A stretch of DNA of 64,000 nt, from NCBI RefSeq assembly GCF_030269645.1, contig NZ_BSTR01000021.1, positions 62,001 to 126,000 of the forward strand. The letters are read 5' to 3'. Below are positions 12,333-62,202 of the stretch, piece by piece (position 1 is the stretch's first letter; every line of letters starts with the position of its first letter). A program made the position numbers and the translations under genes. This DNA is from Actinokineospora sp. NBRC 105648. GTDB taxonomy: Bacteria; Actinomycetota; Actinomycetes; Mycobacteriales; Pseudonocardiaceae. The notes beneath the pieces were generated by a model, which saw only the letters and a program-made list of their open reading frames with translations, was not told the DNA's origin and ran no database searches.

Positions 12333-12477
12333 TGCTCGATGGGCTGGAGTGGCTTTGTTTGGGGCCCCTAAGAAAAGAGGCGCCGTGGGTAGAGCGGGTG
12401 GGAAAGGGATACCCACCGCCTGGGCCAGGCTAGCGCCTCTTTTCTCCCCAAACAAAGCCACTCCAGCCCATCGAGCA
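12333..12477 (-). repeat. Foldback element copy A (GCTCGAT family)
   Basis: Perfect 32-bp inverted repeat (12333-12364 with 12446-12477), then a 6-nt bulge and a further perfect 13-bp pairing (12371-12383 with 12433-12445). The central 49 nt contain GGTGGG/CCCACC and GCCTGG/CCAGGC minor hairpins. By comparison with copies B-E the sense strand is minus. It lies in the gene-free stretch 12233-12832, which also holds copy B and, at about 12530-12582, a purine-rich segment able to form a short hairpin (GGAAGAGA / TCTCTTCC). No gene is supported in that stretch. Confidence 0.9.
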
Positions 12478-12613
12478 CTTGGGCGGGAAGGTGGCAGTTG
12501 GGAGGGGTTCGGGCAGGGCCGGGCAGACTGAAGGAAGAGAGGAGGGGAATCCACCTCTCTTTGTCTCTTCCAATAATCGCACTGGCTGGAACCGGCGGCC
12601 CCGCTACGGAAGT

Positions 12614-12753
12614 GCTCGATCTAGTGGACTCCCTTTGTGTGGGGGGAGGTGACCGCTAAACTTGCCTCAGTGGTGGGGATGCCCTTCACCCCACGCTCTT
12701 TCCCCACGCGGTCGCCTAGGGGCCTCGCGCAAAGGGAGTTCGCTAGATCGAGC
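12614..12753 (+). repeat. Foldback element copy B (GCTCGAT family)
   Basis: The left arm starts GCTCGATCTAGTGGACTCCC and pairs with the right arm ending GAGTTCGCTAGATCGAGC. All four mismatches over the first 28 bp are G.U pairs on the plus strand. An inner stem AGGTGACCGC (12647-12656) pairs with GCGGTCGCCT (12708-12717), again with one G.U. The loop holds the family core ACCGCTAAACTTGCC and GTGGGGATGCCC. Sense strand is plus. Confidence 0.9.
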
Positions 12754-24364: not shown

Positions 24365-24617
24365 GCAAGAGCTCCCAACCCCGCTGGCACGTAACAGGAT
24401 CCCCGCCCGCTGGTACCGCAGTGGATAGGCCGACCTCGCTGGCACGCAGAAGAGCCTCGTCCTCCAGCAAACTGCAGTGGATAGGCCGAGCCCGCTGGCA
24501 CGCAGAAGGGCCCCGTCCTCCAGCAAACCGCAGTGGATAGGCCGACCCCACCGACAAGCAGAAGGGCCCCGTCCCCCAGCAAACCGCAGCGGATAGGCCG
24601 ACCCCGCTGGTACGCAA
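24365..24617. repeat. 56-bp tandem repeat array
   Basis: Unit starts GTGGATAGGCCGACCCCGCT and contains GGCACGCAGAAGGGCC and CCTCCAGCAAACCGCA. Clear units begin at 24421, 24477, 24533 and 24589 (last one partial), period exactly 56; a degenerate copy precedes at 24365. 56 is not a multiple of three, so the array is not a coding repeat. An inverted fragment of the unit (TTGCGTACCAGCGGGCTCGG) occurs at 25029-25048, beyond copy D, so the unit brackets elements C and D. Confidence 0.9.
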
Positions 24618-24631
24618 GTCCCGTTACGAAT

Positions 24632-24771
24632 GCTCGATCTAGTGGACTCGCTTCGTGTGGGGGAGGAGTACCGCTAAACTTGCCGGTGGTGGGGAATGCC
24701 CTTCACCCGCCCTTTTTTCACCACCGCGGTGCTCTAGGGGCCCCGCGCGAAGTGAGTTCACTAGATCGAGC
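24632..24771 (+). repeat. Foldback element copy C (GCTCGAT family)
   Basis: Arm GCTCGATCTAGTGGACTCGC with 11 further bases (24632-24662) pairs with 24741-24771. All four mismatches over 31 bp are G.U pairs on the plus strand. The core reads TACCGCTAAACTTGCC and GTGGTGGGGAATGCCC, matching copy B and the reverse of copy D. Sense strand plus. Copies B and C share most of the outer arm but differ by compensating changes (CCCTTT/AAAGGG against CGCTTC/GAAGTG). Confidence 0.9.
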
Positions 24772-24871
24772 CCCCATCTTTTCCTCGGGCAGCCCCAACG
24801 ACGAGCCGCCAACAAGGTCGACCGTAGGTCGGCGTGCGGCACACCCTCCGAGCTGCCCAAGTAAAGCGGAG

Positions 24872-25011
24872 GCTCGATCGGGTGGAATGCCTTCGCGCGG
24901 GGCCCCTAGAGCACCGCGGTGGGGAAAAAGCGTGGGGTGAAGGGCATCCCCACCACACGGCAAGTTTAGCGGTACTCTCCCCCCACACGAAGGCATTCCA
25001 CCCAATCGAGC
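24872..25011 (-). repeat. Foldback element copy D (GCTCGAT family)
   Basis: Arms 24872-24902 and 24981-25011 pair over 31 bp with three mismatches; each is C.A on the plus strand and G.U on the minus strand. The core TACCGCTAAACTTGCC reads on the minus strand. Copies C and D are 100 bp apart in inverted orientation, and GGGCAGC/GCTGCCC in the spacer can also pair. The stretch 24251-25159 holds no supported gene. Confidence 0.9.
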
Positions 25012-25048
25012 ACTGGCGTAGCGGGTGTTGCGTACCAGCGGGCTCGGG

Positions 25049-49139: not shown

Positions 49140-49212
49140 GCCGGCATAGCTCAATTGGCAGAGCACTCGCCTTGTAAGCGAAAGGTTCCGGGTTCGAGTC
49201 CCGGTGCCGGCT
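49140..49212 (+). tRNA. tRNA-Thr (anticodon UGU)
   Basis: Folds as a 73-nt cloverleaf. Acceptor GCCGGCA pairs with TGCCGGC, discriminator T; D arm GCTC/GAGC; anticodon loop CTTGTAA, giving UGU; T arm CCGGG-TTCGAGT-CCCGG. The first pair of the anticodon stem is C.A. CCA is not encoded. No integrase or att duplication was seen beside it. Confidence 0.97.
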
Positions 49213-49285: not shown

Positions 49286-49378
49286 TCTAACGCTGGGTGG
49301 GTGCTATCAAGGGCGCCTTCGGCGTCGCTGCGCGATTCCGCTGCGCTCCACCCTTGACAGCACCCACCCAGCGCTAGA
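49286..49378 (-). repeat. Foldback element F (different family)
   Basis: Arms TCTAACGCTGGGTGGGTGCT and its partner ending GCACCCACCCAGCGCTAGA pair over 28 bp (49286-49313 with 49351-49378). Both mismatches are A.C on plus and G.U on minus. The loop holds GCGCAGCGG and CGCGCAGCG repeats (minus strand) and a CGCC-TTC-GGCG hairpin. It does not share the GCTCGAT ends of copies A-E. Confidence 0.85.
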
Positions 49379-61901: not shown

Positions 61902-62040
61902 GCTCGATCGGGCGGACCGGCTTGATCTGGGGACCCCGGAAGAGGCGCGGTGGGTAAAGCGGGTGGGGAAGGGATCCACCCACCTGCCAGGCAGCTTAGC
62001 GCCTCTTCCCCCCAGATAAAGCCGGTCCGCCCGATCGAGC
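61902..62040 (-). repeat. Foldback element copy E (GCTCGAT family)
   Basis: Arms 61902-61932 and 62010-62040 pair over 31 bp with one mismatch. Inside, GAAGAGGCGC pairs with GCGCCTCTTC, then core GTGGGTAAAGCGGGTGGGG and TTAGCGCCTCTTCC as in copy A. Sense strand is minus. Conserved flank continues to about 62075 (TTGGGCGGGTGGGTGCGGTTGGG). It fills most of the 375-bp gap 61828-62202, which holds no gene. Confidence 0.9.
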
Positions 62041-62099
62041 AGTTGGGCGGGTGGGTGCGGTTGGGCTGGTGGTGGGGTGGCGAGTGTGGGTTGCTCGTC

Positions 62100-62134
62100 G
62101 GGGTGCGGGGTGCGGGGTGCGGGGTGCGGGGTGC
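62100..62134 (+). repeat. Five tandem GGGGTGC heptamers
   Basis: Five exact copies of GGGGTGC, followed by further G-rich sequence up to 62165. The tract lies about 70 bp before the ECF42-type sigma start. It could form a quadruplex on the coding strand. Copy number is likely variable. Confidence 0.9.
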
Positions 62135-62202
62135 CGGGTGTAGGTGGGGCGGGGCGGGGGGCGGGCTTTGCCCTGGGGTGACCCTGCTGTTCTGATTGGG
62201 GG

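What the first reader, a model, noticed from the sequence alone, without database searches (positions are those of the whole stretch)
12333..12753. Five-member family of foldback elements with covarying stems
Copies A (12333-12477), B (12614-12753), C (24632-24771), D (24872-25011) and E (61902-62040) share GCTCGAT ends, a length of 139-145 bp, a core (ACCGCTAAACTTGCC or its relatives, then GGTGGGGATCCC) and conserved outer flanks such as CCCGCTACG..AGTGCTCGAT. Their 31-32-bp terminal stems are not the same sequence: for example GGGCTGGAGTGGCTTTG in A, CGGGCGGACCGGCTTTA in E and TCTAGTGGACTCCCTTT in B. Each copy still pairs with itself along the whole arm. Differences in one arm are matched in the other. 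That is compensatory evolution of a secondary structure, not simply copied DNA. I know no named element that fits; it may be a non-autonomous mobile element or an unrecognised structured RNA.
Basis: seen in the sequence. Interest (0 to 1): 0.8.

Follow-up and report, generated by a model that had tools for sequence, protein, structure and literature searches.

The report
Folded repeat capping DUF222-HNH nuclease genes
An Actinokineospora bacterium carries hundreds of copies of a 140-base hairpin whose two arms change together in step, and in three related genera the same hairpin sits at both ends of genes for a nuclease of unknown role (DUF222-HNH), so it is likely the folded, probably RNA-acting, end piece of a mobile element.

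Summary
The exact-end pattern occurs 311 times in this genome, the reversed control 0 times. All 10 Actinokineospora genomes sampled (own included) and nine further genera of the family carry it. RNAalifold finds 39 pairs, 24 with two-sided changes; 97.3% of cells pair, 34-43% when slid. On one strand stem mismatches are G·U, not A·C: 227 to 2 in this genus, 31 to 1 elsewhere. So one strand, probably RNA, is what selection sees. Copies are intergenic (0 of 102 overlap genes; 1 of 102 between divergent genes) and undecayed (68 intact, 2 truncated in 1.26 Mb). In five genomes of genus g20, 93 of 94 elements lie within 1.5 kb of a DUF222 gene, all 93 facing outward; capped DUF222-HNH genes recur in Kibdelosporangium and a third genus. 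I read the solo copies here as non-autonomous relatives of DUF222-HNH mobile units. Against: DUF222 occurs in only 2 of 16 Actinokineospora genomes, so what moves or keeps the copies here is open. No Rfam family fits.

The parts
12334..12476 (-). Element A (type 2, perfect 31-bp outer arm), between convergent genes; outward-facing neighbour of B
   Evidence: (118.9 bits)
12614..12753 (+). Element B (type 1)
   Evidence: 130.8 bits
24632..24771 (+). Element C (type 1a); identical 140-nt copies on contigs C1 and C32
   Evidence: 138.6 bits
24872..25011 (-). Element D (type 1b), inward-facing partner of C
   Evidence: 147.8 bits
61902..62040 (-). Element E (divergent type-2-like copy) in the gap between a small gene and an ECF-sigma-like gene (names recalled, not looked up); not found at the orthologous place in 12 of 12 relatives
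   Evidence: (113.3 bits)
12582..12613 (+). Left flank of B, repeated beside most type-1 copies of this genome (CTGG..CCCGCTACG)
24415..24616 (+). 56-nt tandem array (3.6 copies) whose unit holds the type-1 left-flank module, leading into C
24600..24631 (+). Left flank of C
24772..24871 (.). Spacer between the inward pair C and D; similar spacers in other pairs
25012..25047 (-). Left flank of D

Best explanation
The five elements belong to a foldback repeat family with hundreds of copies per genome that is likely spread as the non-autonomous form of mobile units built around DUF222-HNH nuclease genes, its folded single strand, probably RNA, being the form that selection preserves. Shown: the family, the two-sided pair changes, the one-strand G.U bias, intergenic placement, absence of decayed full-length copies in the stretches searched, and outward-facing copies at both ends of DUF222 genes in three other genera. 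Inferred: that these composite units move, that the nuclease (predicted helix-turn-helix part plus HNH domain) recognises or cuts near the foldback or its insertion site, and that solo copies in Actinokineospora descend from such units or were mobilised by them in trans. Untested: transcription of the element, binding, cleavage and movement.
For: Copy number 311 by exact ends, control 0; pattern counts of 200, 186, 76, 74, 70 and 48 in six of the 15 other genus genomes (the counts of 1-17 in the other nine include chance matches); 29 of 200 family genomes, 10 of 46 genera, by model. Covariation. One-strand bias 227 G.U to 2 A.C in 97 oriented copies, 30 to 2 when collapsed to species-position-type, 31 to 1 in 37 copies from eight other genera, 18 to 1 collapsed; no C-to-T excess in the middle of the element (2 C>T, 6 G>A; left flank 5 and 3). 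0 of 102 overlap predicted genes; 1 of 102 between divergent genes against 108 of 324 (own) and 25 of 83 (G003) gaps over 150 nt. Recent spread: identical 140-nt copies at three places with different outer flanks. E not found at 12 of 12 orthologous places; the gap is about 20 nt in the nearest relative and 411 nt here. DUF222 link: 93 of all 94 matches in five g20 genomes within 1.5 kb of DUF222, 93 of 93 outward, where 0.5-1.9% of the genome lies that close; 15 of 24 DUF222 genes of G071 capped on both sides; the 6 outward pairs 1-2.1 kb apart that I fetched from G157 and G045 hold DUF222-HNH coding sequence, 4 of the 6 checked with Pfam. The HNH part resembles TagI, McrA, IscB and Cas9 HNH domains, and the N-terminal helices ParB-type DNA-binding domains, both at middling Z.
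Against: DUF222 is found once in this genome, with no element within 1.5 kb, and in 2 of 16 genus genomes, so no present-day partner is seen here. No gene-bearing composite turned up among the Actinokineospora stretches read. Both-sided capping outside G071 is rarer: 6 of 57, 1 of 17, 0 of 32 and 0 of 19 in the other g20 genomes, partly a matter of model sensitivity; 14 of 30 fetched DUF222 loci show no element. Target-site duplications were not established. Elements sit at matching places in two sister species of g17, which fits vertical descent. Strand bias cannot by itself tell RNA from single-stranded DNA.
Confidence: 0.6

Rival explanations
1. Host-useful RNA element: the foldback works in cis at gene 3' ends, as a terminator or RNA-stabilising structure, and each copy is kept by selection; DUF222-HNH genes in other genera merely use it as an insulator.
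For: No decayed full-length copies in 1.26 Mb although simulated copies with 30% substitutions were recovered 20 of 20; private stem changes in 72 type-1 copies are paired or G.U, 0 broken among 17 cells (copies chosen by intact ends); placement between convergent or tandem genes, avoiding divergent gaps; matching positions in g17 sister species.
Against: No firm sense bias in tandem gaps: unpaired copies 13 sense to 7 antisense over two genomes (10 to 2 here, 3 to 5 in G003). E not found at 12 of 12 orthologous places. Copy number varies widely within one genus. The outward capping of DUF222 genes in g20 is not explained.
Confidence: 0.22
2. Single-stranded DNA element of the REP/REPIN or IS200-like kind, folded on one DNA strand during replication and moved by a Y1 (HUH) transposase.
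For: Foldback, one-strand bias, inverted pairs, intergenic sites, hundreds of copies.
Against: Y1_Tnp is not found in this genome and is found in 2 of 16 genus genomes, while E. coli and four other control genomes ring; no strand bias along complete genome G012: at most 36 of 65 copies on one replication strand for any origin tried.
Confidence: 0.08
3. Pure DNA palindromes kept symmetric by arm-to-arm repair (gene conversion or template switching), with no selected fold.
For: Arms identical or nearly so in many copies; conversion between copies is possible at one g17 locus.
Against: Arm-to-arm repair has no reason to leave G.U rather than A.C mismatches on one strand (227 to 2, 31 to 1), nor to keep an unpaired 5-6-nt stretch and a core motif on one side only.
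Confidence: 0.07

Closest known systems
bcr1 repeats of the Bacillus cereus group
   Same: About 150 nt, interspersed, foldable, mobile-like, on average 39 and up to 130 copies per strain (PMC6542083 and PMC2267715: passages read)
   Different: Different sequence and phylum; bcr mobility is tied there to a TTTAT motif, which lies within 15 nt of an end in 0 of 84 copies here; no DUF222-HNH link in the passages read
REPIN/RAYT
   Same: Many intergenic palindromes, inverted pairs, persistent sequence population (titles and starts of abstracts seen; the rest recalled)
   Different: Unit is about 140 nt with a one-sided bulge and core; Y1 partner not found in 14 of 16 genus genomes
DUF222-HNH / REP13E12 repeat proteins
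   Same: The capped genes in g20, g28 and g31 are DUF222, with HNH by Pfam in g28 and g31 and by eye in g20
   Different: Structured foldback ends are not described in the listings and passages I saw; the copies here lack the gene
IscB-omegaRNA and other OMEGA systems
   Same: An HNH nuclease gene beside a structured, outward-reading candidate RNA; HNH domain similar to IscB and Cas9
   Different: No RuvC part was identified; in G071 the first nucleotides outside the foldback are conserved, not a variable guide; no activity shown

Membership tests
Structured RNA family of Rfam 15 | Match at or above a curated gathering score | tested here: not met
   Only a tRNA in the window; best overlap with an element is a miRNA model far below its cut-off, 35.6 against 168 bits; 19 loci including other genera, none over a cut-off
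Structured RNA (any) | Pairs conserved through two-sided changes | tested here: met
   24 of 39 pairs, 0 of 500 shuffles
Structured RNA (any) | Strand-specific G.U tolerance | tested here: met
   227 to 2 and 31 to 1
Structured RNA (any) | Transcript exists | not testable with these tools
   No expression data
MITE | Short, multicopy, inverted terminal arms, no gene | tested here: met
MITE | Target-site duplication | tested here: inconclusive
   Flanks are themselves repeated; no close empty site at hand, nearest relative 79% identical beside E
MITE | Full-length relative with the same ends and a mobilising gene | tested here: inconclusive
   DUF222 units in other genera, movement unproven; none seen in this genome
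REPIN/RAYT | Y1 tyrosine transposase partner in the genome | tested here: not met
   0 in G000, 2 of 16 in the genus
bcr1-type repeats | TTTAT motif at the ends | tested here: not met
   0 of 84 copies within 15 nt of either end
DUF222-HNH unit (composite) | DUF222-HNH gene between two outward elements | tested here: not met
   For the window copies and the Actinokineospora stretches read; met in g20, g28, g31
OMEGA (IscB/TnpB) RNA-guided system | Variable guide copied from the flank next to the RNA scaffold | tested here: not met
   In G071 a 9-mer directly outside is conserved (at most one change) on both sides of 15 of 15 units; other genomes not tested
OMEGA (IscB/TnpB) RNA-guided system | RuvC-like nuclease part | tested here: inconclusive
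   Fold search lists ParB-like helices and HNH

The most novel reading that the evidence does not exclude
DUF222-HNH proteins, the 13E12 repeat family of actinobacteria, are RNA-assisted homing nucleases: the outward-reading foldback at each end is their RNA cofactor, and the solo foldbacks of Actinokineospora are a self-spreading population of such RNA genes, a third kind of HNH-plus-RNA mobile system beside IscB and Cas9.
Probability: 0.13. Interest if true: 0.95.

Novelty: new variant of a known kind. Interest (0 to 1): 0.76.

Why it matters
It adds a large family of one-strand structured repeats, with unusually strict covariation, to the actinobacteria, and gives a first lead, as far as my searches show, on the ends of DUF222-HNH units. 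Related loci (REP13E12 in mycobacteria) are described in a 2026 preprint as lacking defined biological function and as hot spots of gene conversion (PMC13061034, passages read). A defined folded end makes both questions testable: is the fold RNA, and does the HNH nuclease act on it.

Tried and rejected
Rfam at gathering and relaxed thresholds: no family. Plasmid and phage collections with one copy: no match. Y1 transposase as partner: not found in 14 of 16 genus genomes. DUF222 as partner inside the genus: 2 of 16 genomes. A gene between closely spaced elements in this genome: by their look ordinary host genes and one transposase piece, not searched further. In G007 an inward pair 1 kb apart holds a broken transposase-like stretch. 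Strand-biased cytosine deamination as the source of G·U: no C>T excess in the middle. Replication-strand bias: none. Reach beyond the family: 7 of 298 genomes of the order, all in the own family, with only 10 candidates scored per genome under stricter filters. Two home-made hairpin scans of DUF222 loci failed on their positive controls and a folding scan did not discriminate; none is used. Recurrent neighbour genes other than DUF222 in further genera: only orthologous loci of two sister species. The fold search lists no other domain for the middle of the protein; that absence is not taken as evidence. In the profile search of solved structures a MarR regulator (E 0.026) and Cas6 chains (E 0.3-0.7) also appear; I give them no weight.

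Full report
What is there. Five foldback elements lie at the stated places: A 12334-12476 (-), B 12614-12753 (+), C 24632-24771 (+), D 24872-25011 (-), E 61902-62040 (-). I call plus the strand that has the CTAAACTTGCC-like core in its 5' half and TAGGGGCCCC in its 3' half. The exact-end pattern GCTCGATN{110,140}ATCGAGC occurs 311 times in the 8.43-Mb genome and the reversed control 0 times.

Anatomy. An outer stem of 31 bp (30 in some species, often shorter in other genera), an unpaired 5-6-nt stretch on the 3' side (TAGGGG or CAGAGG before CCCC or CTCC) opposite 0-2 nt, a second stem of about 10 bp, an internal loop with a YTAARCTTGCC-like core, and an apical hairpin. On 26 diverse copies from 9 genomes RNAalifold gives 39 pairs, 24 with two-sided changes. 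97.3% of 1009 cells pair; shuffles give 81.5%, 0 of 500 as high; slides of one to three columns give 34-43%. Copies share descent, so the shuffle figure is not a probability; the slide control keeps descent.

One strand. Among 97 oriented copies (98 distinct copies found by exact ends and at least 22 of 31 arm matches; one, E, was unoriented in that count) the outer stem has 2755 Watson-Crick cells, 227 G·U, 2 A·C and 23 others. Collapsed to one count per species, position and pair type it is 30 to 2; for types seen at most twice it is 9 to 2. Eighty-four copies of this genome alone give 180 to 2. In 37 of 41 copies from eight other genera (4 skipped because no ungapped arm could be set) it is 31 to 1, with 29 U·C, mostly one recurrent mismatch, and 5 others. 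A duplex-only cause would give G·U and A·C alike. Strand-biased deamination should show as C>T in the middle of the element; it does not (2 C>T, 6 G>A), though the left flank has 5 and 3. Most G·U positions have both A-U and G-C sister states. I take RNA as likelier than single-stranded DNA because G·U is a good pair in RNA (established knowledge), copies show no replication-strand bias and Y1 transposases are missing; this remains inference.

Copies are intact. In 72 type-1 copies (chosen by intact ends) the 17 stem cells private to one copy are 14 Watson-Crick and 3 G·U, 0 broken; 6 of the 14 come from one copy. Sequence profiles run over 1.26 Mb of this genome hit all 68 elements known from the covariance model and two other places, both truncated copies; simulated copies with 10, 20 or 30% random substitutions were recovered 20 of 20 each. 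The covariance model shows the same gap: 31 places above 100 bits in 864 kb, the next distinct place at 22.6. In G003, 36 places score above 113 bits, then two unrelated-looking palindromes at 45.6 and 30.6. This lack of rotting copies means rapid turnover, selection on copies, or both.

Where they sit. By my own gene finder, of 104 elements 102 could be placed (2 at ends of stretches): 0 overlap a gene, 62 lie between convergent genes, 39 between tandem genes and 1 between divergent genes. Gaps over 150 nt are divergent in 108 of 324 cases (own) and 25 of 83 (G003). Unpaired copies in tandem gaps are 10 sense to 2 antisense here, 3 to 5 in G003. Flanks are repeated within a genome: type 1 has a CCCGCTGG..CCCGYTACG module on the left, before C as part of a tandem array (56 nt x 3.6), and inverted pairs about 80-150 nt apart are common. 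Gain of E: with both neighbour genes recognised in 12 relatives, none has the element there, and the gap is about 20 nt in the nearest, against 411 nt here.

Spread. By pattern, counts in the genus run from 1 to 311; the low ones are at least partly chance matches in genes. The model finds the family in all 10 Actinokineospora genomes sampled, the own one included, also where the ends differ (at most 16 candidates scored each); complete genome G012 has 65. In 200 genomes of the family, 29 have a match, 10 of 46 genera; in 298 of the order, 7, all in the own family, with stricter filters.

The DUF222-HNH link. Proteins next to elements in four genomes of genus g20 were homologous and are DUF222; three of them carry an HNH-like C-terminal motif by eye (HNH was not reported by Pfam for these). 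Comparing the tables of five g20 genomes, 93 of all 94 element matches lie within 1.5 kb of one of 149 DUF222 matches (of 151) and all 93 face outward, 60 upstream and 33 downstream, where 0.5-1.9% of each genome lies that close. In G071 15 of 24 DUF222 genes have both ends capped; in the other four genomes 6 of 57, 1 of 17, 0 of 32 and 0 of 19. The 15 G071 units measure 1.59-1.64 kb and share an inverted 9-mer directly outside both foldbacks, at most one change, in 15 of 15. In G157 (Kibdelosporangium by a 95% protein match) five outward pairs and in G045 one, all that I fetched, hold DUF222-HNH coding sequence, one interrupted and one with masked bases; the four checked by Pfam show DUF222 plus HNH, HNH over its cut-off in one. 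Several solo copies lie in the same genomes beside ordinary genes. So the same foldback is the paired end of DUF222-HNH units in three genera and a free repeat in others. But 14 of 30 fetched DUF222 loci have no detectable element, and in Actinokineospora DUF222 is found in 2 of 16 genomes.

How it most likely works. A DUF222-HNH nuclease unit with foldback ends spreads between intergenic sites, and gene-free foldbacks spread with it or are left behind. The plus strand, read outward from the unit, folds, probably as RNA, and this folded strand is what is preserved. Which step needs the fold is not known. The frequent gene conversion among mycobacterial REP13E12 loci (PMC13061034, passages) would fit a nuclease that provokes repair from another copy. 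Unexplained: what keeps hundreds of intact copies in genomes without DUF222, and why two sister species of g17 keep a handful at matching places (four loci compared), with two compensated pair changes between them at one locus, or replacement by another copy there.

Print status. My searches for this family or for structured ends of DUF222 found nothing (open-licence library only, listings and passages, not whole papers). That is not proof of absence in print.

Noticed in passing
window 24415-24616: 56-nt tandem array, 3.6 copies, holding the type-1 left-flank module; repeated flank pieces are also seen beside copies in L058 and L070.
   Followed up: partly
window 49286-49378: 28-nt inverted repeat with a 37-nt loop downstream of the tRNA at 49140-49212; no resemblance to the family seen.
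   Followed up: no
window 62099-62140: Six copies of the heptamer CGGGGTG just after element E.
   Followed up: no
L185 (G000:C14:120240-121175): The single DUF222-HNH match of this genome (443-aa frame, HNH over its Pfam cut-off) with no element within 1.5 kb.
   Followed up: partly
L366 1762-2796: Broken transposase-like stretch lying between two inward-facing elements in genome G007.
   Followed up: partly
L112 6611-6716 and L111 2930-3031: Other long palindromes of 102-106 nt in G003, near true elements but of different sequence.
   Followed up: no
L163/L327, L164/L335, L328/L342, L334/L348: Elements at matching sites in two sister species of g17, showing long-term retention in a low-copy lineage.
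   Followed up: partly
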